Assembly (NCBI GenBank): GCA_020634415.1
Contig: JACKBT010000004.1
Location: forward strand, 1-64,000
DNA: 64,000 nucleotides
Direction of reading: 5' to 3'
Origin: Ardenticatenaceae bacterium
GTDB lineage: Bacteria > Chloroflexota > Anaerolineae > Promineifilales > Promineifilaceae
Part shown: positions 1 through 64,000 of the stretch, in pieces
Position numbering within the stretch: position 1 is the stretch's first letter
Layout: each line of letters begins with the position of its first letter
Translations under genes and position numbers: made by a program
The notes under the pieces: generated by a model
What the model was told of the DNA's origin: nothing
What the model saw: the letters and a program-made list of their open reading frames with translations, nothing else
Databases searched by the model: none

Positions 1-717
1 TGCCTCGGCCAATTCCCACAAAGCACCGGCTAAGCCACCTTCAGTGGGGTCGTGCATGGCCGTCACCTCGCCCGCATCCACCGCCAGTTGCGCCTCGCGC
101 AGCACGCTGATGCCCGGTTCGGTGAGGAAGTTTTGGGCTTGTTGCAGCTCCTCATCGCTTAAAATCCCTTGCAGCCGTTCCGGGAATTCGCGGGCCAAAA
201 TGGCGGTGGCTTCGATGGGAATGCCTTTGGTGAGCAGGATGTGGTCGCCTGCATTCATCTTGTGCGGCGTGATTAGCCTGTCTCGTGTGACTTCGCCGAT
301 GAGTGTGCCCATGAGGATCGGCCGTTCCAAGCCATATGTAATCTCCGTGTGACCGCCAATGAGGGAGATGCCTTTTTCTTCACAGGCAGATACCAGTTGT
401 TGGTTGATGGTGGTGACGAGATCGGCCGTTGTTTGGCCCTCTGGCAGCAGCATTGTGACCATTAGCCAGCGCGGGGTGGCGCCAGTGGTGGCGATGTCGT
501 TGCTGTTCACCTGCACCAGATACCAGCCGATTTCATCGGTGGCAAAGGTGATGGGGTCCGATTTGAAGACGAGCAGGGTGTCGCCCAGCTCAATCACGGC
601 GCAGTCCAGGCCGATGCCCGGTTTGACGATGACGCGCTCATCGAAAACGGGGGCCTGGGCTAACAATTGGGCGAGTAAGGGCGGGGGTAGTTTGCCGAGG
701 GGGAGTGGTGTTGTCAT
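1..717 (-). CDS. AIR synthase-related protein (HypE/PurM superfamily), C-terminus cut off
   Basis: The frame opens at an ATG at 717 and runs 239 codons to the window edge without a stop. Visible elements fit the AIR synthase fold: an N-terminal half with KSDPITF and NSNDIATTG, then IGGHTEIT, and in the C-terminal half DPTEGGLAGALWELAEA, the conserved motif of the AIR_synth_C domain. The family binds ATP and activates carbonyl, carbamoyl or selenide groups (PurM, HypE, SelD, ThiL). HypE-like is the closest feel because of DPTEGGLA, but the diagnostic HypE C-terminal cysteine would lie beyond the edge. No hydrogenase maturation genes are in view, so the substrate is unknown. It may be cotranscribed with the genes upstream on the same strand. 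Confidence 0.75.
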   Translation of the reverse strand, partial: MTTPLPLGKLPPPLLAQLLAQAPVFDERVIVKPGIGLDCAVIELGDTLLVFKSDPITFATDEIGWYLVQVNSNDIATTGATPRWLMVTMLLPEGQTTADLVTTINQQLVSACEEKGISLIGGHTEITYGLERPILMGTLIGEVTRDRLITPHKMNAGDHILLTKGIPIEATAILAREFPERLQGILSDEELQQAQNFLTEPGISVLREAQLAVDAGEVTAMHDPTEGGLAGALWELAEA

Positions 718-732
718 AGGGTGAAGGGTGCA

Positions 733-1349: not shown

Positions 1350-2975
1350 CTAGTTGTAGTGGGCTTCGATACGGCCGTTTACCACCCACCAAATCTCCGT
1401 CGCAAAGCGCTCAATAAAATAACGGTCATGCACCACCGCCAAAATCGTGCCGTTGTACTGCGTCAACGCCTGCTCAAAGCGGGTACGCGAGGGGATGTCC
1501 AAATGATTGATCGGCTCGTCCAGCAAAAGAAAGGTACAACCCATCGCCACCAGGCGGGCCAATGCCAGCCGCGCCCGTTCGCCATAGCTCAATTGGGCAT
1601 TGGGGCGAATGGCATCATCACCAGCAAAGAGGAAAAAGTGCAAAAAGGATCGCGCCTCGGTCTGGTTCATGGCCGCCACCGCTTGAATGGTGTCCAGCGG
1701 CGTGCTGTCTGGCTCCAAATTCTCCTGCTCCTGGCTCATGTAGCCCATCTGCACGCTGCTGCCGAGGTGGAACTGACCAGCCAGCGGCGCAATCTGGCCG
1801 GCGATGGTGCGCAGCAGGGTGGTTTTGCCGCTGCCATTCGGCCCCGTCAGCACCACGCGCTGCCCCAGGCTAATCTCCTCGTGGAGATGGGCCAGCAGCG
1901 GCGGCTGGCCGGGATAACCAACGGCCAGATTTTCCAGACGCAGCACATCGCGGCCGATGTAGTCGGCTTCGCCGAATTCCAGCTTCATCTGCCAGCCCTG
2001 TTTGGGCTTTTCGATGCGCTCGTCGGCGGCCAGGTAGCGGTCTAGCTTTTTCTCGCGGGATTTGGCTTTTTTGGCGACTTTTTTGGCGAGGCGGCGCACG
2101 CTGGGCTGGTTGGGCTTGGTGGTGCGTTCCACATGCAGGGCCTGCTCTTTGGTGCGGGCGATGTCCTGCCGCATTTTGCGAATCTCGTAGACCTGATCGC
2201 GGTAGGCGGACAGCAGTTTTTCTTGCTCTTGCAGGTATTGGTCGAGGTAGTCGCTGTAGCTGCCGGGGTAGTCGCGGATGGTTTGGGTTTCGGGGTTGAG
2301 GTCTATGATGCGGGTGACGGTGCGATCCAGGAAGGTGCGGTCGTGGGAGACGATGAGGGCGCCGCCGGGGAAGTCGGCCAGCCAGCTTTCGAGCCATTCG
2401 AGCATTTCGATGTCGAGGTGGTTGGTGGGTTCGTCTAGCAGCAGCAGGTCTGGCTCGTCGAGGATGATGAGGGCCATTGCCAGCCGTGTTTTTTGGCCGC
2501 CGCTAAGGTGCTGCACAGAGAGGTCGGGGTCTATGGTGTGCAGGTTGAAGATGGCGAGGGTGGCTTGGATACGGCCGTTATCCATCCGCCCCAACTTTGC
2601 CAACGCCGCATCATAGGCCAGGTGTAAATCCTCCCGTTCTGGTTCCTCGGCCAGAGCCAGGCCCAACTGCGCCAACTCGGCTTCGATGGCCTCCGGGTCG
2701 CCGACGCGCTGCTGCAAAAGCTGGCCTAAGGTCAGGTTGGGGTCGGGTTCAAAGCCCTGCGCCAGGTAGCCCAGGCGCAAATCGGCGGGGGAGAGGGCCA
2801 TATGACCGCTGTCGGGATGCTCTGCACCGGCCATGATGCGCAGCAGGGTGGTTTTGCCGCTGCCGTTGGGGCCGATGAAGCCGACCCGCTCGCCGGGATT
2901 GACGGTGAAGGTGATGTTTTTGAGGATGGGGTTGAGGTTGTAGCTTTTGCTGATTTGGTGCGCGGTGATCGCCAT
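1350..2975 (-). CDS. ABC-F family ATP-binding protein
   Basis: 541 residues with two ABC ATPase domains in tandem and no membrane segments, the arrangement of ABC-F translation factors (EttA, Uup, YkpA types). First domain: Walker A GPNGSGKTT at 35-43, signature LSGGQKTRLA, Walker B LLLDEPTNHLD. Second domain: GPNGSGKTTLL, LSYGERARLA and LLDEPINHLD, where Ile replaces the usual Thr. A long basic coiled linker rich in Lys/Arg (RRLAKKVAKKAKSR) separates them, as expected for the P-site tRNA interaction motif. These proteins act on stalled ribosomes. Some confer resistance to ribosome-targeting antibiotics, but nothing here indicates that. The start at 2975 (MAITAHQIS) is preferred over an upstream TTG. 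Confidence 0.88.
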   Translation of the reverse strand: MAITAHQISKSYNLNPILKNITFTVNPGERVGFIGPNGSGKTTLLRIMAGAEHPDSGHMALSPADLRLGYLAQGFEPDPNLTLGQLLQQRVGDPEAIEAELAQLGLALAEEPEREDLHLAYDAALAKLGRMDNGRIQATLAIFNLHTIDPDLSVQHLSGGQKTRLAMALIILDEPDLLLLDEPTNHLDIEMLEWLESWLADFPGGALIVSHDRTFLDRTVTRIIDLNPETQTIRDYPGSYSDYLDQYLQEQEKLLSAYRDQVYEIRKMRQDIARTKEQALHVERTTKPNQPSVRRLAKKVAKKAKSREKKLDRYLAADERIEKPKQGWQMKLEFGEADYIGRDVLRLENLAVGYPGQPPLLAHLHEEISLGQRVVLTGPNGSGKTTLLRTIAGQIAPLAGQFHLGSSVQMGYMSQEQENLEPDSTPLDTIQAVAAMNQTEARSFLHFFLFAGDDAIRPNAQLSYGERARLALARLVAMGCTFLLLDEPINHLDIPSRTRFEQALTQYNGTILAVVHDRYFIERFATEIWWVVNGRIEAHYN

Positions 2976-3020
2976 AGTGGGGCAAGGATAGTGGAAAGCC
3001 GCTTTTCCTGCCAATTTTGG

Positions 3021-3079
3021 GGAGACTGGAGATTGGAGACTGGAGGCTGGAAGTCGCTAGTCTCCAATCTCCAGTCTCC
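3021..3079. repeat. GGAGACTGGAGATT hairpin repeat, copy 1
   Basis: Perfect 21-base arms at 3021-3041 and 3059-3079 around a 17-base loop. The arms are made of tandem units of the form GGAGACT/GGAGATT. It lies between the malic enzyme stop and the ABC-F start. Related copies are at 19623, 27021, 30002, 45102, 48889, 50232, 51195 and 55411. Confidence 0.9.
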
Positions 3080-3091
3080 TCCTAAACATTG

Positions 3092-4744
3092 TTAATTGCT
3101 GTTGAGGTAATTGGGATAGTCGGGTTCGTACATGTGGGCACGAACGGCGGCGGCTAAATCGGCGGGTTCGGGGGTGGTTGCCAGGCCGGTTTGATAGGCG
3201 ATGGTGGCGACGGCGGTGGCGATTTTGGCCGATACGTCTCGGATTTTAGCCAGGGGTGGGTAGATACGGCCGTTTGCCAAATCAGCTTCCTCTACCTCTG
3301 CCGCCAGTGTCTTGGCTGCGGCCATAAACATCTCATCCGTCACCAGCCGCGCCCCGCTGACGACAATGCCCAGCCCGACACCGGGGAAGATGTAGGCGTT
3401 GTTGCCCTGGGCGGGGAAGAAGGTTTGCCCATTGAAGACGACCGTATCGAAGGGGCTGCCGCTGGCGAAGATGGCCCGGCCATTTGTCCAACGGTAGGCT
3501 TCTTCGGCGGTGCATTCGGATTTGGAGGTGGGGTTGGAGAGGGAGAAGACCATCGGCCGTTCGTTCCACTCCAGCATGGCTTCTAGGACGGGTTGGGTGA
3601 ACATGCTGGGCTGCCCCGATGCGCCGATGATGGCGGTGGGTTTGAGAGCTTGTACGGCACTGAGGAAGTCGGGCAAAAATTCGTGGTCGTGGGCAAACGG
3701 CCGTTTGTAATCACCCAAATCCTGCCGACTGCTCACCACTAAGCCCCGCGAATCCACAAACCAGCAGCGCAGTCTGGCTTCGGCTTCACTCAAGCCTTCC
3801 TCCATCATGGCCGAGACGGTGAGATTGGCAATGCCTGTGCCTGCTTCGCCTGCGCCTAAGAAGAGCAGTTTTTGGTCACTCAGTTTGCCGCCGGTGATGC
3901 GTAAGGCGGAGTAGAGGCCGGCCAGGGTGACGGCGGCTGTGCCTTGAATGTCGTCGTTGAAGGAGCAGACGCGGTTGCGGTAGGTTTCCAGCAGGTGGAA
4001 GGCGTTGTTGGTGCCGAAGTCTTCAAATTGGATGAGGGCATGGGGGTAGCGGGCGGTAACGGCCGTTATAAACTCCTCCACAAACGCCTCATACTCCTGG
4101 CCGCGCAGCCGCCGTTGGGGCAGGCCAATGTATAGCGGATCGTCCAACAGTGTTTGCCGATTTGTGCCCACGTCCAGGGTGATGGGCAATGTTTGGGAGG
4201 GCGGGATGCCAGCGCAGGCGGTGTAGAGCGAGAGTTTGCCTACGGGGATGCCCATGCCGTTTGCGCCTAAATCACCCAGGCCCAAAATGCGCTCGCCATC
4301 GGTGACGACGATGACGCGCACGTCATCGTGCTGCCAGTTGGCGACGATTTCAGCGATGTGGCCTCGGTCTTCGGCCGAAATGTAGAGGCCGCGTGGCCGA
4401 CGGAAGATATGCCCATATTCCTGGCAGCCCTGGCCGACGGTGGGGGTGTAGATGATGGGCATCATTTTGTCTAGATTGTCTATGACCACGCGGTAGAAGA
4501 GGGTTTCGTTGCGGTCTTCTAGGGCGATCATGTAGATGTATTTTTCTAGATCGTTGATTTTGCGCTCGAAGTTGTCCATGACGCGCTGTACCTGGACGGC
4601 TTGACTGCCGATGCGTGGCGGCACAAGCCCGCGTAAACAGAAGGCATCGCGTTCGTGGGCGGTAAAGGCAGTGCCTTTGTTTAATTCGGGGTTATGCAAT
4701 AACGCCACGCCATGTGGGAAATCGGAAATTTGTTGTTCTTTCAT
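3092..4744 (-). CDS. NAD-dependent malic enzyme
   Basis: 550 residues, the size of the large bacterial and eukaryotic-type malic enzyme (MaeA/SfcA class). It oxidatively decarboxylates L-malate to pyruvate with reduction of NAD(P), linking the TCA cycle to pyruvate in the cytoplasm. Recognisable parts: the N-terminal domain with GTAFTAHERDAFCLRGL, the catalytic Tyr in PIIYTPTVG (Tyr100), GANGMGIPVGKLSLY with the catalytic Lys170, the metal-site region FEDFGTNNAF, and the nucleotide-binding LGAGEAGTGIANL. The ATG at 4744 has AAGGAC upstream. Cofactor preference cannot be fixed by eye; NAD is the norm for this architecture. The gene is flanked by repeats on both sides and looks monocistronic. 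Confidence 0.92.
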   Translation of the reverse strand: MKEQQISDFPHGVALLHNPELNKGTAFTAHERDAFCLRGLVPPRIGSQAVQVQRVMDNFERKINDLEKYIYMIALEDRNETLFYRVVIDNLDKMMPIIYTPTVGQGCQEYGHIFRRPRGLYISAEDRGHIAEIVANWQHDDVRVIVVTDGERILGLGDLGANGMGIPVGKLSLYTACAGIPPSQTLPITLDVGTNRQTLLDDPLYIGLPQRRLRGQEYEAFVEEFITAVTARYPHALIQFEDFGTNNAFHLLETYRNRVCSFNDDIQGTAAVTLAGLYSALRITGGKLSDQKLLFLGAGEAGTGIANLTVSAMMEEGLSEAEARLRCWFVDSRGLVVSSRQDLGDYKRPFAHDHEFLPDFLSAVQALKPTAIIGASGQPSMFTQPVLEAMLEWNERPMVFSLSNPTSKSECTAEEAYRWTNGRAIFASGSPFDTVVFNGQTFFPAQGNNAYIFPGVGLGIVVSGARLVTDEMFMAAAKTLAAEVEEADLANGRIYPPLAKIRDVSAKIATAVATIAYQTGLATTPEPADLAAAVRAHMYEPDYPNYLNSN

Positions 4745-4820
4745 GTTTGTCCTTTTTATGGGCCTGATACGGCCGTTTCAATAAATTTATGCGGCTCTTG
4801 GTGGTTTTGTGGGGCTGCAC

Positions 4821-4846
4821 GGGCGGGCACAAGGCCACGCCCCTAC
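4821..4846. repeat. Dispersed 26-base repeat shared with 16765-16790 (inverted)
   Basis: Starts GGGCGGGCACAAGG and ends CCACGCCCCTAC. An exact inverted copy is at 16765-16790, where it continues to a fuller palindrome-like GTAGGGGC...GCCCCTAC. It lies in the malic enzyme leader region. Confidence 0.8.
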
Positions 4847-4899
4847 GCCAGCATTCATCAAAGAGCCATATTTGTAGGTAAGTTTGATGTTTATATTGG

Positions 4900-5097
4900 T
4901 TACGAGTGATGATGGTTGGAGATGCCCGCGTAAACGGCCGCTCCCAAAGCCAAAATGAGCAAGGCGGCAGCAATGGTGAGGGGCAGGGTGAGTGCACCCA
5001 GGGAGGCCCAAACCATTGTTGGTAAAAATGCCATGATCAGGGCGGCGATGATGGCGGTGAGGATCGCTAGCAATAAACCAAGAATGTCAATACCCAT
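4900..5097 (-). CDS. Small two-helix membrane protein
   Basis: 65 residues, almost entirely hydrophobic. A first helix covers about residues 5-27 and a second about 30-57, with a short His-rich tail (SNHHHS). The ATG at 5097 is preceded by AAGGAAA at good spacing, which supports a real gene. I do not recognise a family. It resembles the many small YtxH/DUF-like membrane peptides of Gram-positive and Chloroflexota genomes. It lies 15 bases upstream of nothing on its own strand except the malic enzyme leader, so its role cannot be read from context. Confidence 0.65.
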   Translation of the reverse strand: MGIDILGLLLAILTAIIAALIMAFLPTMVWASLGALTLPLTIAAALLILALGAAVYAGISNHHHS

Positions 5098-5112
5098 TGA
5101 ATCGTTTCCTTT

Positions 5113-6126
5113 TTAAGCAGCAACGGCTAATTCTGGCCAGGCTTTGGCGGCCCGGCCGTTTTCGCGCAGCCAACAGGCAGTGGTGTGTTTTGTGCCCACG
5201 CGGAAGAGGGGAGGAACGGCCGTTAAACATTTCTCCATGGCATACGGGCAGCGTGGGGCAAAGGGACAGTGTGTGAACTCCTGTCTTAAATCGGGCGGCA
5301 GCCCCTCAATTGAAGCCAGCCGCCGCTTTTGCCTGGCATCAACGGTGGGAATAGATTGGAGAAGGGCTTTGGTGTAGGGATGGGTGGTACGGGTGTACAA
5401 ACTGCTCACTTCGGCCATTTCCACAATATAACCGGCATACATCACCGCCACCTTTTGTACTAGGCCCGCCACCACGCCCATATCATGCGTAATCCAGATG
5501 ATGGCCATGCCCAGCTTTTGTTGTAGCTGTTTCACCAACTCGACAATCTGGGCCTGGATGGTGACATCCAGGGCGGTCGTAGGTTCGTCGGCGATGAGGA
5601 TGGCCGGGTTGCAGGAGAGGGCCATGGCGATCATGATGCGCTGCCGCTGTCCGCCGGAGAATTGGTGGGGATAATCAGATAGACGGTTTTCGGCATCGGG
5701 CAGGCCGACAAGGTTTAGCAGTTCGACGGCGCGTTTTTTGGCTTCGTGGTTGTTCATGTGCAGATGGAGTTTGAGTCCTTCCATGAGTTGGAAGCCAATG
5801 GTGAGAACTGGATTGAGACAGGTGACGGGGTCTTGGAAGATCATGCTGATTTCGCGGCCACGAATGTGGCGCATTTCTTCGGCTGAGATTTTGAGGAGAT
5901 TACGGCCGTTGTACCACACTTCACCTCCTTCTACCCGTCCGGGCGGCATAGGAATCAGCCCCAAAAGCGACAAGACGCTTACCGATTTGCCGCAGCCGCT
6001 TTCCCCTACCAGGGCCATAGATTCCCCTTCGTCCAGAGTGTAGGAGATGCCGTTGACGGCGTTGACAATGCCTTCTTCCGTATAAAATTTTGTTACCAGG
6101 TTTTTCACCTCGAGTAAATGTGTCAT
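5113..6126 (-). CDS. Oligopeptide/dipeptide ABC transporter ATP-binding protein (OppD/DppD type)
   Basis: 337 residues with a single ABC ATPase domain. Walker A GESGCGKS is at 41-48, signature FSGGQRQRI starts at 156, Walker B ILIADEPTTALD follows, and the D-loop/switch His is in WITHDMGVV. The C-terminal extension carries THCPFAPRCPYAMEKC, the cysteine pattern of the oligopeptide-transporter C-terminal domain, where it can hold an Fe-S cluster. Such ATPases energise uptake of peptides, nickel or oligosaccharides with two permeases, a partner OppF ATPase and a binding protein. None of these is adjacent: the next genes are a tiny membrane protein and a kinase. It is therefore an orphan subunit that must serve permeases encoded elsewhere. 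Confidence 0.9.
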   Translation of the reverse strand: MTHLLEVKNLVTKFYTEEGIVNAVNGISYTLDEGESMALVGESGCGKSVSVLSLLGLIPMPPGRVEGGEVWYNGRNLLKISAEEMRHIRGREISMIFQDPVTCLNPVLTIGFQLMEGLKLHLHMNNHEAKKRAVELLNLVGLPDAENRLSDYPHQFSGGQRQRIMIAMALSCNPAILIADEPTTALDVTIQAQIVELVKQLQQKLGMAIIWITHDMGVVAGLVQKVAVMYAGYIVEMAEVSSLYTRTTHPYTKALLQSIPTVDARQKRRLASIEGLPPDLRQEFTHCPFAPRCPYAMEKCLTAVPPLFRVGTKHTTACWLRENGRAAKAWPELAVAA

Positions 6127-6449
6127 GTTAACCCCCTGCCAGACTTACGCCGTTGGGTCAATGAAACAGGTTTGTTCGGTATGGTCAGATGGGGCTTGTT
6201 TGAATGTGGGGTGGAGAGATTTTGTCTGGCGGGTTGGGTTCTCTCTGTGCAGTAGGCTCCCATCTTGACAATAGGTTATTAAGCACCTATTAGTCTGCCA
6301 TAAGCGGGGATGGGGGCGTAGTGATGAATAGCATATTCGCTCAAGCCGAAAGTCATCACAGCTAACGCCTGTGTGCTGATGGGCATAGAAAGGGGTGTGT
6401 TTTTATTTCGATTGAAGATGAGAGCAGCGGTTTTAGGCTATTGCTTTGA
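6127..6449. other. 323-base spacer, no gene seen
   Basis: Contains the leader of the OppD-type gene and the trailer of the kinase gene. I find no convincing reading frame, terminator hairpin or known repeat here. It lacks the ACGGCCGT palindrome found in most neighbouring stretches. Confidence 0.5.
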
Positions 6450-9128
6450 TCAATAGAGGTATGGCTGCACGACGCTCAATAAAGTATCTAAGTGGTAGGG
6501 TTTTTGTAAGAAGGGGATGGTGTCGCCAAAACGGCCGAAAATCTCTGTTTCGCTGAAGCCAGAGGAGATGATGATGTGTACGGCGGCATTGATCTGCTTG
6601 ATTTTTGTGTATGTTTCTTCGCTGCTTATGCCGGGCATGGATAAGTCGAGCAGGATGAGTTTGATTTTCTCCTGATGTTGTTGGTAGACGGCGAGTCCCT
6701 CTTCGCCATTGACGGCCGTTATGGTTTCAATGCCGTTTGTGTGTAGGATATCGGTGACGGCATCGAGAACGGCCGTTTCGTCATCAATGACCAAAATAAC
6801 ACCTTGTTCCACCCCTTTTTCCTCGGCTTCGGCAACCGTTGGCTGTAGTTGAACAACCAAATCTTCAGATGGGGCGGGGAAGATAACGGTAAAAGTTGTA
6901 CCGACACCAACCGCACTGTCTACATGCAACCCGCCTTTGTGGCCTCGAATGATGCCTAGCACAGCGGCGAGACCTAACCCACGCCCTGTGAATTTGGTTG
7001 TAAAAAAGGGATCGAAGATTTTGGATATGGTTTCCTTATCCATCCCACAGCCGTTATCCTCAATTGTCATACTCACGTACCGACCGGATGCTAGAGGTAT
7101 GCTGGTATATTGCCAAAAACGGCCGTCATCTTCTGCCAACTCTTGAACCCCCGTCATAATCCTCACAATACCGTTTTTGCCCTCCATAGATTCTGCGGCA
7201 TTAATGATCAAATTCATGATCACCTGCTGAATCTGACCTTGATCCCCTTCTATTAAGGGCAATGGGTCTGGTAGACCCCAAACGAGTTCAACTTGTTTGG
7301 GCAAAGCCACCTGAAACAAGTTGAGATTTTCCTGAATGAACGCATTTAGATAGATAGTCTTGCGTTGAAAATGCCCGCGCCCCGAATAAGCCAACATTTG
7401 CCGCGTTAAATCCGCAGCACGCTCGGCCGCCTTGATGGCTTTCTGAATGTGAGGTGAAGCTGTGCTGCCTGATGGCAATTTAGACATGGCCACCGAAGAT
7501 TGGGCCATCATCGCCATCAACAAGTTGTTGAAATCATGAGCAATGCCACCGGCTAATATTCCCAGGCTTTTTAACTTTTCTGAGTGGCGCAGCGCATCTT
7601 CAGTTTTTCGGCGCTCCGTAATATCGCGTATGATCGCCAATTGATGGGGCTTCCCATGGTAAATAATCATCGTCCCATGCAGCTCAACATCAAGTGGCGT
7701 GCCATCCTGACAAACATTAATAATATCGGCGTAGAAATATTCATCTGGGGCGATTGCCCCCCGCAATTTTGGCAAGATATTGTGGTAATCGGGGTGTATG
7801 ATTTTCTCTGGTGGCAGACCAACAAAGGTATCATTTGAATAGCCATGCATCTGGCAAGCTGCGGCGTTGGCTTCCACGATGATGCCGGCTTCATTGATAA
7901 TGATCAGGCCATCTGTAACCGCTTCAAAAATGCCACGATACTGTTTTTCACTCTCCATTAAGGCTTGCTCAGTTCTCTGCTTGGCGGCCAGGTTTTCTAC
8001 AAAGGTGTTGAACCATTGCACAAGTTCTCCGATTTCATCTTGGCTGCGAACTTGCAGGCGTGCCTGTTCGTTGAGTGTGCCATCCTGGTGTTCTTGAAAA
8101 CGCTGGGTGATTTGCTGAATGGGTGTAACAACGTCTCGGCTGTAGAGCAGTGCGGCTAGACCCACAATAAATAGGCTGATGATGACGGCAACGGCCGTTG
8201 CCATGCCAATTACCGACGTTTTAGCGGTAAGCGTACTAATGGGGATCAGGCTCATAATGATCCAATCATTGATATCAGAGTGGATGTGATTGATATACAT
8301 TGGCTGCCCATCAAGCACAGACTCAAAAGAGCTAACTTGTTGCCCTGGCATCTGACCATGCTCCGCCAACACCGATAATAAATCTGGATCAATTTGATGG
8401 CCGATAGTTTCCTTGTCGGGATGATAAATAATCCTGTTTTTGCCATCCACAACCATTAAATAAGCCCCTTCGCCCAGCTTTATACGATTAAAATGATCAT
8501 ATAAATAATCAACATTGTAGTTGACAAGGATGAGAGCCGATGGTTCTTGGGCCAGAGTCGAACGATCAATCCGCGTTAAAACTTTAGCGGCCGTAATCAC
8601 CTTTCTGTGGGCCGAATTTACATTGACGTTATCTTCAATGCCTATCCAAAGCACAAACTGGTCGCTGTTAATCGTCTCGGCAAAGATTTTGTCTTTTACA
8701 TCCGTCCGAATACTGGCTACATTCAGCGTGTCGCCGACATGATAGTGCTGGTCATTCACCGTAAAAATGTCTATAGACACCAACCCTTCCAAATTGGAGT
8801 AATTGTTCAGTATATAGCCAATACGTGCTTGGGTGGCTAAGTTGGTGAAGGTATCATCTGAAGCCGTTTCATCATTCAATGTATTGGTAATGTCTTCAAC
8901 ACTAGAAAGGTTGGCAATAAGACTGTCAATTTGGGCCAATTGCAGATGTAAATATTCTTGTTGGTTGATAACAAACTCCGACGCATATTTTGTTGACTCT
9001 TCAAGCAATACGGAGCGGGAAATGCGATAGGAACTAATACCGACAACCAATAAGGGAATAATGCTTAGGAAGATCAAATACCCAATAAATTTTTGAATGA
9101 TGTTAGGTTTTAGTAATGGGCGAGTCAT
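6450..9128 (-). CDS. Membrane hybrid sensor histidine kinase (Cache-HAMP-PAS-HisKA-HATPase-REC)
   Basis: 892 residues. Transmembrane helix 1 at about 12-34, an extracytoplasmic Cache-like sensor at about 40-300, helix 2 at about 304-330, HAMP to about 385, and PAS at about 395-505. The dimerisation domain has phospho-acceptor His531 in GGIAHDFNN. The ATPase domain has an N-box near 638-648, G1 DNGCGM at 691-696 and G2 GRGLGL at 715-720. A C-terminal receiver has phospho-acceptor Asp828 (LLDLSMPG) and conserved Lys in FLQKPY. The layout means autophosphorylation, then transfer to its own receiver. The binding-protein gene just upstream on the same strand suggests it reads ligand occupancy of that protein, as LuxQ reads LuxP. 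No output regulator is adjacent. Confidence 0.93.
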   Translation of the reverse strand: MTRPLLKPNIIQKFIGYLIFLSIIPLLVVGISSYRISRSVLLEESTKYASEFVINQQEYLHLQLAQIDSLIANLSSVEDITNTLNDETASDDTFTNLATQARIGYILNNYSNLEGLVSIDIFTVNDQHYHVGDTLNVASIRTDVKDKIFAETINSDQFVLWIGIEDNVNVNSAHRKVITAAKVLTRIDRSTLAQEPSALILVNYNVDYLYDHFNRIKLGEGAYLMVVDGKNRIIYHPDKETIGHQIDPDLLSVLAEHGQMPGQQVSSFESVLDGQPMYINHIHSDINDWIIMSLIPISTLTAKTSVIGMATAVAVIISLFIVGLAALLYSRDVVTPIQQITQRFQEHQDGTLNEQARLQVRSQDEIGELVQWFNTFVENLAAKQRTEQALMESEKQYRGIFEAVTDGLIIINEAGIIVEANAAACQMHGYSNDTFVGLPPEKIIHPDYHNILPKLRGAIAPDEYFYADIINVCQDGTPLDVELHGTMIIYHGKPHQLAIIRDITERRKTEDALRHSEKLKSLGILAGGIAHDFNNLLMAMMAQSSVAMSKLPSGSTASPHIQKAIKAAERAADLTRQMLAYSGRGHFQRKTIYLNAFIQENLNLFQVALPKQVELVWGLPDPLPLIEGDQGQIQQVIMNLIINAAESMEGKNGIVRIMTGVQELAEDDGRFWQYTSIPLASGRYVSMTIEDNGCGMDKETISKIFDPFFTTKFTGRGLGLAAVLGIIRGHKGGLHVDSAVGVGTTFTVIFPAPSEDLVVQLQPTVAEAEEKGVEQGVILVIDDETAVLDAVTDILHTNGIETITAVNGEEGLAVYQQHQEKIKLILLDLSMPGISSEETYTKIKQINAAVHIIISSGFSETEIFGRFGDTIPFLQKPYHLDTLLSVVQPYLY

Positions 9129-56239: not shown

Positions 56240-56250
56240 GGGGGTGAAAT

Positions 56251-57121: not shown

Positions 57122-57151
57122 AGAGTTTGGGAGACAACTTCAACAGCCAAG

Positions 57152-57178
57152 CAGCCAGATGATGAATCTGGCTGTTTT
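57152..57178 (+). terminator. Terminator of the 30-residue gene
   Basis: CAGCCAGAT (57152-57160) and ATCTGGCTG (57166-57174), five-base loop, then TTTTGTTGT. Confidence 0.85.
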
Positions 57179-57182
57179 GTTG

Positions 57183-58079
57183 TCAGTCGAATTTCGATGC
57201 CAGAATTGTAAGGCAGATCGTGTCCCCCATTTCGGGATCAATAAGTGTGCCGAAGGTGAGATTGGCATTGGTGTGAATCTGCTCTTTGATGCGGTTGATG
57301 ATCTCTGTAAATTCCCACAAGTAAAATTTTGCTCCCGTTTGTATTTGCAGAAGAATATTGTGTGCGCCGTGTATGGATAAATCCATTGGTGGGGAGTACA
57401 TGGCATGTTGCACTGCCTGAACTGCTCGATCTGGCCCTGAGGCGCAATGCCCCCCTAAAAAGATTGGCCCATCTGTTTTGAGCACGGTTTGCAGGGCAGA
57501 GAAGTCTATGTTAACGAGGCCGGGACGCAGCAGGGTGCAGATGGCTTTGACGGCCCAGCAGATGTAGTTTTGGGCTGTTTCGGGCATGGGGGAACGGCCG
57601 TTTTCCTCACCTAACCGCGCCAGGGGCAGCAAAATCAGGGCATCCGTCATGGCTCGCAATCGTGTTAGATCATCTGGCACGCTATCTGGCTGCGGCAACT
57701 GCTGGGGCACAGTAGGTGGTGCAACCAGAGCCAGCGTAAAAACGCCCTGTGTTTGCGCTATCTGGGCCGCCAGCAGCGCAATGGCCGCTTCCTGGCGGCT
57801 GACCAGTGCCGAGACAATCATCAACATATGGATGCCATCCAAAAACGGCCGTATATCGGCCGTTAACTTTGCCACATTTGTGGGGATATTTGCAGGATCG
57901 CTGACTGCCGGTGCGGGGGGTGTGGGCGGCATCAAATAATTTTCACTATCCAGACAAGCTAAATTGATATTTCCCCCTCCCATGTCAAGAACCTGATTGA
58001 TAATCTTCTGGCAGCTTTCATCGCCAATTCCGATAACGGAAATCTGAGCTTTATTTGTAAACCGCCGCTCTCTTCTCAT
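57183..58079 (-). CDS. Divergent FtsZ/tubulin-like protein lacking GTP-binding loops
   Basis: 298 residues. The C-terminal two-thirds follows FtsZ closely in order: DALILLPLARL (cf. the NDRLL strand), the T7-like GLVNIDFSALQTVL (187-200), a GHCASGPDRAVQAVQHAMYSPP equivalent to the GxAxGxxRAxxAAxxAIxSPL helix, GAHNILLQIQTG, LWEFTEIINRI, and the final LTFGTLIDPEMGD and ILASKF. In contrast the nucleotide site is gone. T1 is IGIGDESCQ in place of a Gly-rich loop. The tubulin signature GGGTGTG is replaced by SALVSRQEA (about 90-98), and the second T7 aspartate is Ala195. So it can hardly bind or cleave GTP. It may cap or regulate true FtsZ, or form a nucleotide-independent scaffold. ATG at 58079 with AGGGG. 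Confidence 0.78.
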   Translation of the reverse strand: MRRERRFTNKAQISVIGIGDESCQKIINQVLDMGGGNINLACLDSENYLMPPTPPAPAVSDPANIPTNVAKLTADIRPFLDGIHMLMIVSALVSRQEAAIALLAAQIAQTQGVFTLALVAPPTVPQQLPQPDSVPDDLTRLRAMTDALILLPLARLGEENGRSPMPETAQNYICWAVKAICTLLRPGLVNIDFSALQTVLKTDGPIFLGGHCASGPDRAVQAVQHAMYSPPMDLSIHGAHNILLQIQTGAKFYLWEFTEIINRIKEQIHTNANLTFGTLIDPEMGDTICLTILASKFD

Positions 58080-58508
58080 AGTAACCCCTAGATGCTTCTG
58101 ATGTAAGCAGATTTAGTGACACAAAATAAATGGATATGCAAGGGCTTGCAAAGAATCGTGGAGAAACGCTCTGATATTGATGTTAGCCCTCTACAAGCTG
58201 TTTTCTTAACTATTAGCAGAAAACTCCTAGCTGTCAACGTATGCTTGACCTCGAAAGCGGTTTCAAGTACCATTATGATACTTCTGTTGTAGTACCACAA
58301 CCAAATTAAAGGATTAGGGCTTGAAAGGTCGAAGTGTTGCCCCTTCTTTGGGGACCGCTATCGGGGAGGAAAGCGGATTTAACGACCTCGGGAGAAAAGA
58401 GAGTTAACTGTTCGGGAACACCAAATGATCTCGTGGTGTGCCTGTAGTGCTATATGGCACTGTTCATTCTGTTGTGTTCCTCGGCAGTTAGACAGGACAT
58501 TAAAAAGC
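58080..58508. other. 429-base divergent control region between FtsZ-like and STAND-TPR genes
   Basis: A/T-rich compared with its surroundings and free of the AACGGCCGTT word. It holds two adjacent imperfect palindromes (58265-58283 and 58286-58301). A 70-codon minus-strand frame at 58088-58300 has no ribosome site and is not called. Confidence 0.55.
58265..58301. promoter_or_regulatory. Pair of imperfect palindromes, candidate operator
   Basis: AAGTACCATTATGATACTT (58265-58283; symmetric at 16 of 19 positions) followed by GTTGTAGTACCACAAC (58286-58301; 12-14 of 16). Their place midway between two divergent genes suggests a shared regulator-binding site. Confidence 0.35.
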
Positions 58509-61500
58509 ATGGATGCCAGTCTTATCACCGTAGATGACAAGTTGTTCTTGGGGAGAGTTGAGGAGCAAAAACAATTTCGGGCAGCTTTGCAGGAATTGAT
58601 AAATTCTTCAGACAGAGATGAATTACCGTATATTTCTCTTTTATATGGGGATGGGGGCATTGGTAAATCCACATTAGCCAGACGATTCCGCGATATTGCG
58701 ACATTGGAACGGCCGTATGCTGGCTCCTTTCAATATCTGTGGGTGGATTGGGAGGATGAGCGGAAGAAGTTTGCCGCTCTCCAGGTGGGTTCGGCCAATA
58801 TTAGTGCCGAAGTTGTATTTCGGGGGATTCACGCAACGGCCGTTCGCCAAAAATGGGGCCGCCAATTCCCTGCCTATCGCAAAGCCATCAAACAAGCCAA
58901 CGAAGCCGAGAAAAAAGTAGCCCAACTCCTAACGGCCGAATCCCACCCCGACGAAATAGCCATGCTGCGCAGCGTCGGCGTGGCCGCCATCGCCAAAATC
59001 GTGCGGGCCAAAGTACCCTTCATCGGCGACAAAGGCGAACAGATCGCCAAAACCTTTCTCGACGCGGGCATTCAGATTGGGGCCGACCAGGCTGCCAAAA
59101 TGCGCTCCACCCTGGAAACCTACCTGCGTGCCCACCTCAAACCCAATCACTTCGACCACTTCCTCAACCCCAACGAACAGTTGGCCCACGCCCTGGCGCG
59201 AGGGCTGGCCAAAGTGGCTGAACGCAAACGCCTCATCGTCTTCATGGATGCCTACGAACTGGTAGACCGGGCCGATATTTGGGTGCGGGCTGTCATTCGC
59301 GCTGCTGGGCCGCGTGTCTTGTGGGTCATTTGCGACCGCAACGATCTGGTGCGCAGCCGCCAGTTTGGTGATGAATACTTTAAGGGGTACGCTGACGACA
59401 GCCCGCGCCGCTTGCTGGCTTACCAGATGCGGCCGTTGGCTTTGCAAGACATTCGGGCCTATTTTCAGGCGACGGAATTTACCCTGACGGATGCCGAAAT
59501 TGAGGCCATCAGCCAGGTAACACGGGGTATTCCGCTGGCGATTCAGGAAACGGCCGATCTCCTCAAATCGGGCGCATCTCTCAGCGATGTCATTGGCGAC
59601 GACCAGGCCGTGACACCGGGCGGCAAAATTGTGCGCCGCATGACCGAACGCTACATGCAGCACGTCGTGGCCCAGGCTGACACCACCGCCCTCTATGCCC
59701 TGGTGTTGGCGCGGGGCGATATTGAGATATTACGCGCCATGCTCTCCCCCGATAACGGTGCTGATTTTGACCTGGATGGCCTGCTGCACCGGTTGGAACG
59801 GGACTATGCCTCCGTTCATGCCACCCGTGCCCAACTGCATGACGACCCTGCCATGTTTATCCGCGAATATCTGCGGGCCGATGTGCGCCGCACCAGCCAG
59901 GCCATCCGCACGCTGAACGAACGTGCCATTGCCTTTTTGCGCAGCAATCTGGCCGAGTTGGAGAAGCCGCTAGACACCATTGCCGAGCGCTGCCTGGATG
60001 ACAACTGGCTCCAGGCGGTGTTGGATTTGACCCATTACCTCTTGTGGCTGGATGAAAACGAAGCCTGGCGTTGGCTGATGCCCCGTTATGTGGAGGGGAT
60101 GGCTTACCGGCCGGAGCTTTGTGGCGGGTTATGGGCGGTAACGGCCGAATTCCGCGAACAACTCAGCGATGGTGGCCGCCATCTTTACCGCCTGATGCAG
60201 ATGATGCAAAAATCAGCCCTCCCTCTGGAAGCGGAAGCCGATGTTTTGCAAAATTTGTCCTTGCTGTTGCAGCGCGGTTGGTTTGATGGCGATGGCCGGG
60301 AGGAGCGGGTGGCGATTTTGACCTGGCGGCGGGCCGAGGTGCATCGGCGCCAGGGGGAGTTGATGACGGCCGTTGCCCTCTACCACGATCTCATCAACGA
60401 AATGCCCGAACAAGAAAGCCTGCGCCAACTGGTGGCCGAATCGCTGGAGGCTTTGGCCCTGCGTCTGATTTGGCCCGAAGACAACCAGCCCCATTATTCG
60501 GCCGAGGCCGAGCAGTTTTTGCAGCGTGTAACCGAGTGGCTGCCTGAACGCCAGAGTGGCTGGTATTATCTGGGGTTGGTGCAGGAATTGGGTAAGCAGT
60601 TTGAGCCAGCCCGCGCCGCCTATGAACAGGCGCGGAACTTAGATGAGACACACGCGGCCACCTGGAACGCTTTGGGCAATGTGTATGCCCGCTTAGGCCA
60701 GGATAAGGAAGCGGAGGCGGCTTACAATCAGGCCATCAAGCGAGACAAGGGTTATGCCGCGCCGCAGGTGGGTTTGGGGAATCTTTACCTGACGCGGGGC
60801 GAGACGAAGTCGGCCATTCAGGCTTATGAGAAAGCACTCAAGCTGTCGGAAAATCTGGCAGCTTATCATGGCTTGGGCAAGGCGTATCTGGCCATGGCCG
60901 CTTATGATGAGGCTTTGGCAGCGCTGGAGAAGGCGGTGGCGATGGCCCCGGGTTATGCTGTGCTGCACCGTAGTTTGGGCGATGTGTATTTGGGTAACGG
61001 CCGTTATCCTCAAGCCCAAGCCGCCTATCAACAAGCCCTCAACCTGGATGCCCAAGACCTGCCCGCCCTTATTGGTTTGGGGCGGGTTTATGAAGCCACC
61101 GAGCAGTGGACAGAGGCGGCCAACTTGTATCGGCAGGCCATCCAGCAAGAAACCGCATCCGTGTTTCCCCATGTGGGGTTGGGCAATATTTATGCCCATT
61201 TGGAGCGTTATGAAGAGGCCCTGGCTGCCTATCAGCGTGGGGCGTTGGTAGACCCCCACTATGCCCCTGCCTATGAAGGTATGGGCGATGTGAACCGCAG
61301 ATTGGGGCGGGACGAGGAGGCTTTGGCCGCTTATCAGAAGGCCAATGAATTGGCCGAGGCGCCGGTTCACATCAAACTGGGTGAACTGCTGCAGGATTTG
61401 GGTCGGTATGAGGATGCGCTGCAAGCCTTTCAGCAAGAGGTGGCGCAGAACCCGGATGATGCCCGTGCTTATGTGGGGTTGGGACATCAATACCGCGCCC

Positions 61501-64000
61501 TGGGGCAGTGGGATGAGGCGAAGACAGCTTATGAAAAAGCCCTGGCCTTTGCGCCAGAAACGGCCGAATCCCATTATGGCCTGGGCTGTGTGTTGGTGCA
61601 TTCGGGCGATCTGGATAGTGCGCTGCACTGTTTTGAGGTGGCTCTGGCCCGTAAACCGGCCTTTGCCGATGCCCATGCCAGTGTGGGGGATATTTACCGG
61701 CTGCAAGGGCAGTCGGTTCAGGCGTATGAAGCCTATAAACAGGCCGCTCAACTTGATCCCCAAAATGCGGCGGCTTATGCGGGGCTGGCGGCTCTGTTTG
61801 CCGAGACGAAGCGCTGGTCGGAGACGGTGGCGATGTACCATAAGGCAGTGGATTTGCGGCCAACTCAGCCAGACTGGTGGGCGGGGATGGGTAAGGCGCA
61901 TGTGAAGCTGGGCGAGTGGCAGGCGGCGCAGGCGGCGTATGAGAAGGCGGCGGCGTTGAACGGTGATCATTTGGCGGCGCAGGCGGGGTTGGGGGATGTG
62001 TATCATGCGCTGGGGCAGGTGGATGCGGGTTGGCAGGCGTATCAGGCGGTGCTGGCGCAGGAGCCGGATTATGCTTTGTCTTATGCGAATGTGGGGGATT
62101 TGGCGGCGGCGAAGGGGGCGTGGGAAACGGCCGTTTTGGCCTATGAACGGGCTATCGGTCAGGAGGATAATCTGGTTCAGGCGTATACGGGTTTGGGGCG
62201 GGTGTATGGGCAGTTGGGGCATGTGGATAAGGCGATTCAGGCGTATCAGCAGGCGATTCGGCGTAACGGCCGTTCGGCCACTGCTTTTATTGGTTTGGGC
62301 GAACTGTTTTTGGATATGAAACGGCTGCATGATGCGCAACGGGCTTTTGAGCAAGCACGGCAGTTGGCTCCACAGGAGGTGGCGGTGCATGTGGGGTTGG
62401 GGGATGTGTATCGGCTGGCGGGGCGGGCGGATGAGGCTTTGGTGGTGTATGAGGTGGCGCGGGAGCTGTCGCCAACGGCCGTTCGGCCCATGTTAGGCAT
62501 GGCGGCCATTTATCAGCAGATGGGGCGGTTGGAGGCGGCAGCGGTGGTGTATGAGCGGGTGGTGCAGCTTCAGCCGGATTGTGCGGCGGCTTATTGTGGT
62601 TTGGGGCAGATAACGGCCGGGCGTGAACAGTGGCCGGAAGCTCTGCACGCCTATGACACAGCGCTGCACTATGATGCCACACTGGCTGAGGCGCACATTG
62701 GGCGTGGTAACAGTCTCTTGCGGCAAGCGCAGCACGCTGAAGCGTTGGCTGCTTATCAGCGGGCTTTGTCTTTAGCCGAGGTGCATGATTTCCCCTACGG
62801 TAATTTGGGAGATGTGTATACGGCGTTGGGGCAGCAGGAACAGGCGGTTGCCGCCTATCGCCAGGCCCTTGCTGGCGGCGACTATGCCCCGCGCTACTAT
62901 GTGGCGTTGGGCCAATATTACTGTGAGCAGGCGGATTGGGATGCGTCGTTGACGGCGTATAAGAAGGCGTTGGCGGCTGAACCGGCTCTGGTGGCGGCGC
63001 ATGTGGGGTTGGGCAATTTGTATCAGGCTTGCCACCAAAATGAGGCGGCGATTGCGGCGTATGAAACGGCCGTGCGGCACGGGGGTGAATCGCCGGAACT
63101 GTTGGGGCGCATTGGCTTATCCCAATTGGCCTTGGGGCGTGTGGATGAAGCGGTGGCGCAGTTGGAAATGGCTGTGGCTCAAAATAGTTCGGATGAGTTG
63201 CAGCCGGAGTTGGCTTTGGGTTTGGGGCATGGGTATGTGCGCTTGAAGCAGCATGACAAGGCTATTGCGTTTTATGAGCGGGTGCTGGCTGATATGCCGG
63301 ATTCGGCGATGGCGTATGCCGGGTTGGGGACGATTCATTGGCAGCGGGGGCTGATTAAACAGGCTCGTTCTCTGTTTGATAAGGCTCTGGCGGTTGATGA
63401 GAAGTGCGCTGCGTCTTATGCTGGCCTGGGGGATATTTATGCTTATGAGGCGCAGTGGGAGCGGGCGGAGGAGATGTATCAGCGGTCGCTGGCGCTGGAT
63501 GGGCGGCAAGCGGCCGTTTATTTGGGTTTGGCGCAGTTGAAGCGGGAGAGTGGGGAGTGGGAAACGGCCGTTTCCTACTATCAGCAGTCCCTTAGCCTTG
63601 ATAAAAACAGCAGCGAAGCCTATTGGGGGCTGGCCGAAATCTATGCCCAACAGGGCCAGCCCGACGAGGCCATTGCCCATTACCAAACCAGTCTACAACT
63701 GAATAACCACAATGCTCAGGCGCACTATGGCCTGGGTCGGCAGTTGGCCGGGCAGGATGAGGTGACGGCGGCTTTGGCTGAATTTGAACAGGCGGCAGAG
63801 ATTCAGCCGGAATGGGCTGCACCTTACAGCGGTTTGGGTGATATGCACTGGCAGCTTGAGCAGAGAAATGAGGCCATCGCGGCCTATGAGCGGGCTATCA
63901 AATTAGATGCCTCTTTGGCTGACCCGCATGTGGGTTTGGGGCTTATCTATATGGCCTCCCGGCATTATTGGGAGGCGATGGCGATGTTCCAGCAGGCGGT
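58509..64000 (+). CDS. Giant STAND-type NTPase with tandem TPR repeats, C-terminus cut off
   Basis: An open frame of 1830 codons from the ATG at 58509 to the window edge. N-terminal NTPase: FLGRVEEQKQFRAAL, P-loop LYGDGGIGKST (Lys53), Walker B-like RLIVFMDAYELVD, LWVICDRND and a GxP-like RGIPLAIQE. A helical region follows (about 330-680). From about residue 680 to the edge there are roughly 33 TPR units of 34 residues of the type GLGDVYxxLGQxDEAxxAYExAL; the repeats vary in sequence, so they are old. STAND proteins switch on when the repeat domain senses a ligand; known ones act in signalling, apoptosis-like and antiphage responses. No effector domain precedes the NTPase. The gene is divergent from the FtsZ-like gene, with a shared control region. 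Confidence 0.85.
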   Translation, partial: MDASLITVDDKLFLGRVEEQKQFRAALQELINSSDRDELPYISLLYGDGGIGKSTLARRFRDIATLERPYAGSFQYLWVDWEDERKKFAALQVGSANISAEVVFRGIHATAVRQKWGRQFPAYRKAIKQANEAEKKVAQLLTAESHPDEIAMLRSVGVAAIAKIVRAKVPFIGDKGEQIAKTFLDAGIQIGADQAAKMRSTLETYLRAHLKPNHFDHFLNPNEQLAHALARGLAKVAERKRLIVFMDAYELVDRADIWVRAVIRAAGPRVLWVICDRNDLVRSRQFGDEYFKGYADDSPRRLLAYQMRPLALQDIRAYFQATEFTLTDAEIEAISQVTRGIPLAIQETADLLKSGASLSDVIGDDQAVTPGGKIVRRMTERYMQHVVAQADTTALYALVLARGDIEILRAMLSPDNGADFDLDGLLHRLERDYASVHATRAQLHDDPAMFIREYLRADVRRTSQAIRTLNERAIAFLRSNLAELEKPLDTIAERCLDDNWLQAVLDLTHYLLWLDENEAWRWLMPRYVEGMAYRPELCGGLWAVTAEFREQLSDGGRHLYRLMQMMQKSALPLEAEADVLQNLSLLLQRGWFDGDGREERVAILTWRRAEVHRRQGELMTAVALYHDLINEMPEQESLRQLVAESLEALALRLIWPEDNQPHYSAEAEQFLQRVTEWLPERQSGWYYLGLVQELGKQFEPARAAYEQARNLDETHAATWNALGNVYARLGQDKEAEAAYNQAIKRDKGYAAPQVGLGNLYLTRGETKSAIQAYEKALKLSENLAAYHGLGKAYLAMAAYDEALAALEKAVAMAPGYAVLHRSLGDVYLGNGRYPQAQAAYQQALNLDAQDLPALIGLGRVYEATEQWTEAANLYRQAIQQETASVFPHVGLGNIYAHLERYEEALAAYQRGALVDPHYAPAYEGMGDVNRRLGRDEEALAAYQKANELAEAPVHIKLGELLQDLGRYEDALQAFQQEVAQNPDDARAYVGLGHQYRALGQWDEAKTAYEKALAFAPETAESHYGLGCVLVHSGDLDSALHCFEVALARKPAFADAHASVGDIYRLQGQSVQAYEAYKQAAQLDPQNAAAYAGLAALFAETKRWSETVAMYHKAVDLRPTQPDWWAGMGKAHVKLGEWQAAQAAYEKAAALNGDHLAAQAGLGDVYHALGQVDAGWQAYQAVLAQEPDYALSYANVGDLAAAKGAWETAVLAYERAIGQEDNLVQAYTGLGRVYGQLGHVDKAIQAYQQAIRRNGRSATAFIGLGELFLDMKRLHDAQRAFEQARQLAPQEVAVHVGLGDVYRLAGRADEALVVYEVARELSPTAVRPMLGMAAIYQQMGRLEAAAVVYERVVQLQPDCAAAYCGLGQITAGREQWPEALHAYDTALHYDATLAEAHIGRGNSLLRQAQHAEALAAYQRALSLAEVHDFPYGNLGDVYTALGQQEQAVAAYRQALAGGDYAPRYYVALGQYYCEQADWDASLTAYKKALAAEPALVAAHVGLGNLYQACHQNEAAIAAYETAVRHGGESPELLGRIGLSQLALGRVDEAVAQLEMAVAQNSSDELQPELALGLGHGYVRLKQHDKAIAFYERVLADMPDSAMAYAGLGTIHWQRGLIKQARSLFDKALAVDEKCAASYAGLGDIYAYEAQWERAEEMYQRSLALDGRQAAVYLGLAQLKRESGEWETAVSYYQQSLSLDKNSSEAYWGLAEIYAQQGQPDEAIAHYQTSLQLNNHNAQAHYGLGRQLAGQDEVTAALAEFEQAAEIQPEWAAPYSGLGDMHWQLEQRNEAIAAYERAIKLDASLADPHVGLGLIYMASRHYWEAMAMFQQA

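What the first reader, a model, noticed from the sequence alone, without database searches (positions are those of the whole stretch)
1..64000. Strand composition flips at the palindrome AACGGCCGTT throughout the window
At most copies of ACGGCCGT the plus strand is G/T-rich for roughly 50-150 bases on the left and C/A-rich for a similar distance on the right. Clear cases, by start of the core: 2571, 3266, 3697, 4059, 12963, 19846, 21022, 22821, 26680, 48185, 50494, 52406, 60997. It also holds in non-coding DNA (25125, 40618), so it is not a codon effect. Between sites the skew climbs back, giving a sawtooth. Because the word is palindromic, both strands are C-poor reading 5' to 3' into it. That is the footprint expected if DNA is nicked or broken at the word, 5' ends are resected, and exposed 3' single strands lose cytosines by deamination. 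A Chi-like or replication-linked role is another option. I know of no described system with this pattern.
Basis: partly seen in the sequence, partly recalled or inferred. Interest (0 to 1): 0.92.

Follow-up and report, generated by a model that had tools for sequence, protein, structure and literature searches.

The report
Strand-composition flip at an iterated palindrome
Thousands of copies of a short palindromic DNA word each sit at a point where the strand running into the word is rich in G and poor in C, and the pattern follows the word even where related bacteria use a different word, which points to an undescribed process acting on DNA from these sites.

Summary
ACGGCCGT occurs 97 times in the window (about 1 expected). 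Plus-strand GC skew falls across it: anti-symmetric (G-C) at 8-50 bp is 0.118, z = 11, beyond 5000 jittered site sets. In relative G005 it lies at third codon positions in all three reading phases; pooled intergenic sites agree.

The word is a Highly Iterated Palindrome (HIP), a kind known from cyanobacteria; 30 of 56 genomes of the order hold 0.4/kb or more. Relatives with other words (TCGGCCGA, GCGGCCGC, TGCCGGCA) flip at their own word. At orthologous positions lacking the site the flip is near zero. Sites are kept in 191 of 204 aligned cases, against 41-48% of random 8-mers.

Cytosine deamination on resected tails fails in the genus-level test: C-to-T is 1.06x and divergence 1.03x near sites. 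Instead most gains of G rise and gains of C fall. E. coli GATC, CCWGG and Chi lack the flip at 8-50 bp. I favour a site-anchored, strand-asymmetric repair or conversion process; selection on flanks is a close rival. The enzyme is unknown.

The parts
1371..63571 (.). Set of 97 copies of ACGGCCGT (the resident HIP word), about 1.5 per kb, in coding and intergenic DNA
   Evidence: searches list all 97 starts; shuffles give mean 1.0, largest 4
2571..2578 (.). HIP site; 80 bp GC skew left +0.45, right -0.32
3266..3273 (.). HIP site; left +0.40, right -0.36
3697..3704 (.). HIP site; left +0.39, right -0.35
4059..4066 (.). HIP site; left +0.52, right -0.19
12963..12970 (.). HIP site; left +0.19, right -0.39
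19846..19853 (.). HIP site; left +0.24, right -0.57
21022..21029 (.). HIP site; left +0.15, right -0.19
22821..22828 (.). HIP site; left +0.54, right -0.48
25125..25132 (.).
   Evidence: outside the ORFs of at least 120 aa
26680..26687 (.). HIP site; left +0.46, right +0.19 (falls but does not change sign)
40618..40625 (.).
   Evidence: outside the ORFs of at least 120 aa
48185..48192 (.). HIP site; left +0.09, right -0.24
50494..50501 (.). HIP site; left +0.22, right -0.14
52406..52413 (.). HIP site; left +0.29, right -0.16
60997..61004 (.). HIP site; left +0.39, right -0.28

Best explanation
ACGGCCGT is a Highly Iterated Palindrome, of the kind known from cyanobacteria, in a genome that is probably of the phylum Chloroflexota. 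Shown: the word is massively over-represented, is kept at the same positions between related genomes, is replaced by other words in some relatives, and is flanked on each strand by a 5' stretch in which G replaces C. Shown: the flanking bias tracks presence of the site, reaches out as two decays (about 15 bp and about 100 bp), and does not raise divergence. Inferred mechanism: a protein that reads the word, or nearly matched or mispaired versions of it, opens one strand at the site. Repair then renews the strand leading 3' away from the site on each side, over a short or a long patch. The strand running 5' to 3' into the site is the template that is kept, so changes born on it are fixed and changes born on the other strand are erased. 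This shifts the mix of substitutions towards G and away from C without adding many mutations. The same renewal would restore mutated copies of the word, which would explain over-representation, conservation and word switching without strong selection on each site. The enzyme and the nick are not identified.
For: Flip at third codon positions in each reading phase of G005 and in 58 intergenic sites of G005 and the window pooled. It follows the resident word: G013 TCGGCCGA z 14.2 (204 sites), G029 TCGGCCGA z 13.0 (234), G003 GCGGCCGC z 9.6 (248), G025 TGCCGGCA z 6.2 at 2-12 bp (49) and 4.4 at 8-50 bp (48). Orthologous columns: third-position anti-skew 0.162 (s.e. 0.028) with the site, 0.019 (0.018) in word-using genomes lacking that site, 0.026 (0.011) in the other genomes; paired z 5.0 and 5.1. 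It is larger at more widely shared sites: 0.18, 0.30, 0.33. Two-exponential decay of 14.7 and 97.5 bp with no peak at 10-11 bp. Both sides positive in 47 of 47 loci. Divergence ratio 1.03 near versus far; A-to-G 1.28 with T-to-C 0.74, C-to-G 1.33 with G-to-C 0.77, so rises and falls roughly offset in these two pairs. Sites kept in 191 of 204 aligned cases. One-off words are common at the outer base (G005: G 98, T 85, but C 16) and few at inner bases (6-28 each).
Against: No nick, nuclease or binding protein is identified. No family tested separates genomes with the word from those without: C5 methyltransferase 24 of 52, N4/N6 methyltransferase 41 of 52 over cut-off, Vsr 8 of 52, MutL 48 of 52 over cut-off, DndC 5 of 52 over cut-off. 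E. coli GATC (MutH) and CCWGG (Vsr), where such nick-directed repair is known, show no flip at 8-50 bp, so nick-directed repair alone does not suffice. C-to-A rises (1.52) without a matching fall of G-to-T (1.00), and C-to-T and G-to-A hardly change (1.06, 1.01). Conservation and the towards-G pattern are also what selection would give. In the orthology set the flip at sites did not decay by 20-40 codons (0.17), probably because few positions are shared by many genomes.
Confidence: 0.4

Rival explanations
1. Selection on the flanks: the word is a recombination, DNA-uptake or segregation signal, and the strand running into it works better as a C-poor, G-rich single strand (less secondary structure, or better loading of a protein), so third-position and intergenic bases are selected over tens of bases.
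For: The sign fits a 3' tail ending at a palindromic Chi-like site. A-to-G and C-to-G rise, T-to-C and G-to-C fall, with no excess divergence. Sites are conserved far above random 8-mers. Intergenic divergence is lower within 30 bp of sites than at 200-500 bp (0.09-0.14 against 0.14-0.19). Flanks are not self-complementary beyond composition. A RecA preference for TGG repeats and a TG-rich region near Chi are described in PMC3763553 (passages).
Against: It needs effective selection at tens of bases around up to 15,000 sites per genome (counts). Third-position divergence near sites is not consistently reduced (lower against G011 only), G-to-A and G-to-T losses are not reduced, and TGG is not favoured beyond base composition (0.89). 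E. coli Chi has no such profile at 52 sites.
Confidence: 0.33
2. One reading: breaks or nicks at the word, 5' resection, and deamination of cytosines on exposed 3' single strands.
For: Direction of the GC skew and of the weak AT skew.
Against: C-to-T 1.06x (CI 0.91-1.22), divergence 1.03x, AT skew about -0.04; the model needs nearly 4x C-to-T, about 25% more divergence and an AT skew near -0.3. Third-position and intergenic divergence are not raised near sites overall.
Confidence: 0.07
3. A methyl-directed mismatch-repair ratchet as proposed for cyanobacterial HIPs (Elhai 2015), with the flank bias as a by-product.
For: Same kind of word, alternate words by lineage, one-off words mostly at the outer base (PMC4390886, abstract and outline, passages, section 2.4 and the first part of section 3.4).
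Against: G005, G011, G018 and G042 use the word but have no C5 hit and only weak N4/N6 hits (E 4.3e-8, 4.6e-4, 6.2e-5, 5.0e-4); assemblies may be incomplete. E. coli GATC shows no flip at 8-50 bp. The words skew and asymmetr- do not occur in that paper.
Confidence: 0.12
4. The word arises preferentially in places that already have the skew, or the pattern is a coding or word-specific artefact.
For: Sites found in a single genome already show part of the skew (0.18). Genomes without the word show a very small value at the same columns (0.026, s.e. 0.011).
Against: Orthologous positions without the site have almost no skew; it is larger at widely shared sites; it holds for four words with different reading-phase usage and in intergenic DNA; control words are flat in G005.
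Confidence: 0.05

Closest known systems
HIP1 (GCGATCGC) and alternate HIPs of cyanobacteria
   Same: Palindromic octamer near or above one per kb, lineage-specific alternates, deviations mainly at the outer base, extension to a longer palindrome (PMC4390886).
   Different: Other phylum and words; no universal C5 or N4/N6 methyltransferase found here; a strong strand flip. HIP1 shows a same-sign but weaker flip in Trichormus (z 4.5 and 3.8) and Tolypothrix (4.2 and 2.8) plasmid DNA, not significant in two Nostoc, none in Gloeocapsa, Gloeothece or pSYSX at 8-50 bp; GCSGC, given by Elhai as the alternate HIP of PCC 7822, shows none in Gloeothece PCC 7822 (101 sites, z 0.4).
Chi sites of E. coli and their disputed GT-rich islands
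   Same: A short frequent word with an expected GT-rich 3' strand; the sign agrees. Titles of Tracy 1997, Biaudet 1998 and Colbert 1998 were seen only as references in PMC3763553.
   Different: Chi is not a palindrome; 52 E. coli Chi sites show no local decay of skew. Codon usage, which one of those titles offers for the Chi islands, does not explain this flip.
Very-short-patch repair (Vsr at CCWGG) and MutH nicking at GATC
   Same: Word-directed nicking and strand renewal is what I infer here; how Vsr and MutH act is recalled knowledge.
   Different: Vsr in only 8 of 52 genomes; E. coli GATC and CCWGG show no flip at 8-50 bp.
DNA uptake sequences of Neisseriaceae and Pasteurellaceae
   Same: Frequent, suggested to be gained by point mutation and to be spread and restored by biased uptake and recombination, differing between groups (PMC1939737, passages).
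   Different: Here a perfect palindrome with a strand flip; competence was not tested, and uptake sequences were not profiled.

Membership tests
Highly Iterated Palindrome (HIP) | One palindromic octamer grossly over-represented, near one per kb or more | tested here: met
   97 versus 1.0 expected; 30 of 56 genomes of the order at 0.4/kb or more by rounded genome size, up to about 2/kb
Highly Iterated Palindrome (HIP) | Alternate words in related lineages | tested here: met
   TCGGCCGA in G013 and G029, GCGGCCGC in G003, TGCCGGCA in G025
Highly Iterated Palindrome (HIP) | One-off deviations biased to the outer bases | tested here: met
   G005: outer G 98, T 85, C 16; inner variants 6-28 each; weaker in G003 (outer 4-11, inner 0-12)
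Highly Iterated Palindrome (HIP) | Cognate DNA methyltransferase generally present | tested here: inconclusive
   C5 in 24 of 52 genomes, N4/N6 in 41 of 52 over cut-off; G005, G011, G018, G042 lack a strong hit; assemblies may be incomplete and specificity is unknown
Chi recombination site | Oriented, non-palindromic word | tested here: not met
   the word is a perfect palindrome and both sides behave alike
Chi recombination site | Recognised by a RecBCD, AddAB or AdnAB enzyme | not testable with these tools
   needs biochemistry; presence of these enzymes in the relatives was not searched
Vsr-type very short patch repair | Vsr nuclease present with the word | tested here: not met
   PF03852 in 8 of 52: six that use ACGGCCGT and two (G034, G039) that do not
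Phosphorothioate (Dnd) modification | DndC present with the word | tested here: not met
   over cut-off in 5 of 52; all five use the word, but 25 of the 30 users have no hit over cut-off
DNA uptake sequence | Competence and preferential uptake | not tested
   no strain; not searched

The most novel reading that the evidence does not exclude
Highly iterated palindromes are the start points of an undescribed genome-wide process that repeatedly renews the strand leading away from each site, rewriting tens of bases on both sides towards G on the incoming strand, restoring the word itself, and able to change its word between lineages. HIP1 of some cyanobacteria would be a weaker case of the same process.
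Probability: 0.33. Interest if true: 0.95.

Novelty: new variant of a known kind. Interest (0 to 1): 0.86.

Why it matters
What HIP words do is not settled. A strand-specific, distance-dependent footprint gives a handle on mechanism: it says which strand is favoured, over what lengths (about 15 and 100 bp), and that cytosine deamination is not the main cause. Because relatives switch words and the footprint switches with them, the family is a natural experiment for finding the protein that reads the word. It also means that GC skew and codon choice in these genomes depend in part on distance to the nearest word, which matters for anyone using skew or codon bias there.

Tried and rejected
Hairpin or extended inverted repeat: flank bases are not complementary beyond composition (observed 0.267, expected 0.269 at 3-20 bp in G005; 0.295 and 0.281 in the window). 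Helically phased protein contact: no peak at 10-11 bp in the pooled profile of 4376 flanks; the largest of ten periods tried was 15 bp, and small. Lagging-strand priming or replichore effect: left and right excess both positive in 20 of 20 G005, 20 of 20 G008 and 7 of 7 G013 loci. Mutation hotspot and deamination. TGG/RecA preference. Universal C5 or N4/N6 methyltransferase, Vsr, DndC; MutL is nearly universal, so uninformative. Core enrichment alone: 13 genomes without a chosen octamer have CGGCCG anti-skew between -0.039 and 0.031 in their rpo loci, for example G034 0.006 (72 sites) and G052 -0.003 (56 sites) (no errors computed). Even spacing: spacing is close to random, CV 0.95 and 1.08. 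Sites present in only one of two aligned genomes (13 and 21) were too few to tell whether skew precedes or outlives the site.

Results against or weaker than my reading: HIP1 on Gloeocapsa, Gloeothece and pSYSX shows no flip at 8-50 bp, pSYSX is negative at 2-12 bp (z -2.1), and GCSGC in Gloeothece is flat. E. coli GATC, AATT and CCWGG have small effects at 2-12 bp (+0.020, +0.014, -0.025), and two E. coli controls, CAGCTG (103 sites, 0.019, z 2.6) and TGGCCA (31 sites, 0.032, z 2.4), are raised at 8-50 bp. Control GC[CG]GC is -2.2 in Tolypothrix and CAATTG +2.1 in Nostoc C057. The first, rpoB-only orthology pass was noisy, with a flip-like value at 4-8 codons in genomes lacking the site.
Full report
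What was tested. The finding claims that the plus strand is G/T-rich left and C/A-rich right of ACGGCCGT. The window has 97 copies; shuffles give about 1. Averaged anti-symmetric (G-C) at 8-50 bp is 0.118, z = 11.0, positive at 84% of sites; random positions are flat; control palindromes are flat in relative G005 (17 words) but mostly too rare in the window to judge. Moving every site by 150-400 bp in whole codons never exceeds 0.036 in 5000 tries. Verdict: confirmed.

Where it comes from. No genome is held for the window. Its malic enzyme is closest, at 64-70% identity over the nine best loci, mostly to metagenome genomes labelled Anaerolineae, Ardenticatenaceae or Chloroflexi (one of the nine is labelled Myxococcales), so the host is probably Chloroflexota; this is inference from one protein plus the shared word. 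The word is dense in relatives: 30 of 56 genomes of the order hold at least 0.4 per kb by the rounded genome sizes, up to 15,176 copies in one genome.

Not a codon effect. In G005, third-position GC skew in the first 6 bp is +0.29 to +0.64 upstream and -0.30 to -0.67 downstream, depending on reading phase; the window shows the same for the two phases with more than 20 sites; 58 intergenic sites (G005 and window pooled) behave alike. At four-fold sites in G005 C drops from 0.36 to 0.18 and G rises from 0.35 to 0.48 upstream; two-fold sites drift the same way. The gene calls are simple longest-ORF calls.

Word switching. Two genomes use TCGGCCGA, one uses GCGGCCGC and one uses TGCCGGCA, the last noticed because it is the reversed control pattern. 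The flip appears at the resident word in each (z 14.2, 13.0, 9.6; for TGCCGGCA 6.2 and 4.4). Non-resident octamers in these genomes have 3-14 copies and none exceeds z 2.1. TGCCGGCA has another core and lies mostly in other reading phases, yet third positions within 30 bp show +0.47 and -0.36. Genomes rich in CGGCCG but without a chosen octamer show no clear flip.

Causality. In nine alignable genes around rpoB from 40 genomes (24 with ACGGCCGT at 0.4/kb or more in the locus, 16 below, of which G013, G029 and G003 use another word) there are 57 distinct site positions. With the site the third-position value over ten codons is 0.162 (56 columns); word-using genomes without that site give 0.019 (51 columns) and the other genomes 0.026 (54 columns); paired z 5.0 and 5.1. 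It is larger at widely shared sites: 0.18 (21 columns, one genome), 0.30 (15 columns, 2-4 genomes), 0.33 (21 columns, five or more). Caveat: in this set the flip at sites is still 0.17 at 20-40 codons. All 20 word-using loci with a printed value were positive, two of them with only four sites.

Evolution near the word. 200 kb of G008 was compared with syntenic contigs of three relatives; 34,829, 43,967 and 25,865 bases aligned at 88-90% identity. Of 204 aligned sites 191 are kept (69 of 73, 71 of 79, 51 of 52), against 41-48% of random 8-mers; 8, 7 and 8 further sites exist in the relative only. An earlier pass on the rpo loci gave 63 shared to 1 not, 94 to 13, 4 to 0 and 51 to 5. Divergence at third and intergenic positions is about equal near (3-30 bp) and far (100-300 bp), ratio 1.03 (CI 0.93-1.13). 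First and second positions diverge more near sites (mostly 0.07-0.10 against 0.05-0.055), so sites lie in looser protein stretches; intergenic DNA diverges less near sites. In the oriented 5' flank A-to-G (1.28), C-to-G (1.33) and C-to-A (1.52) rise and T-to-C (0.74) and G-to-C (0.77) fall with intervals that exclude 1; C-to-T (1.06), T-to-G (1.22), A-to-C (1.11), G-to-A (1.01) and G-to-T (1.00) do not differ clearly. This excludes deamination as the main cause in these relatives.

Shape. The pooled profile of 4376 flanks from six sources fits two decays, 14.7 and 97.5 bp, with no peak at the helical period. Both sides are positive in each of 47 loci.

Comparison. In 250 kb of E. coli, GATC (1020 sites), CCWGG (659) and Chi (52) have no such profile at 8-50 bp; two of the other palindromes tried, CAGCTG and TGGCCA, are mildly raised (z 2.6, 2.4). 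HIP1 in cyanobacterial plasmids is mixed: positive in Trichormus and Tolypothrix, same sign but not significant in two Nostoc, absent in Gloeocapsa, Gloeothece and pSYSX at 8-50 bp; pooled over seven records z = 3.3; the alternate HIP of PCC 7822, GCSGC, is flat in Gloeothece PCC 7822. No family searched separates word-rich from word-less genomes; five DndC genomes all use the word, but 25 other users lack a hit over cut-off.

Literature. Elhai 2015 (PMC4390886: abstract and outline, passages, section 2.4 and the first part of section 3.4) describes HIPs in cyanobacteria, alternates and a methyl-directed repair model; the words skew and asymmetr- do not occur in it. The listings of searches held no paper that I recognised as describing this flip; for the last I saw 12 of 83. 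One search for the octamer itself returned 196 papers, of which I saw 10 listings, none relevant by title. The library is open-access only, so prior description elsewhere is possible.

Interpretation. The site drives the flank. Two readings fit: strand-asymmetric repair or conversion anchored at the word, which I put first because it explains conservation, over-representation, word switching, tract-like decay and roughly offsetting substitution changes together; and selection for a G-rich, C-poor incoming strand. The data do not separate them cleanly. The nick, the enzyme and any modification are inferred, not shown.

Noticed in passing
L278 (G008:C1:100001-120000), positions 9730-9787, 15472-15553, 17316-17398, 18512-18692, 19397-19484: Short dispersed repeats that hit many places, mostly at about 80-95% identity, in four related genomes.
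   Followed up: no
window 17127-18913: An acetyl-CoA synthetase-like open frame (17558-18913, 451 aa) matches only positions 2-312 of the 384 of the AMP-binding profile, and another minus-strand frame (17127-17627) overlaps its end; possibly a frameshift, the second frame was not searched.
   Followed up: no
window 15565-16038: Short YhgA-like putative transposase frame, matching positions 1-118 of a 203-position profile.
   Followed up: no
window 19686-24923: A 1745 aa open frame with no Pfam match at 1e-5, carrying 16 copies of the word.
   Followed up: no
window 32996-40452: Genes with TadE and Tad (TadE/G-like) domains, a possible Tad pilus cluster.
   Followed up: no
genomes G034, G037, G046, G052 (rpo loci): CGGCCG is 3.8 to 9.7 times its base-composition expectation with no strongly preferred outer base and no clear flip, as if the core were favoured by something else.
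   Followed up: partly
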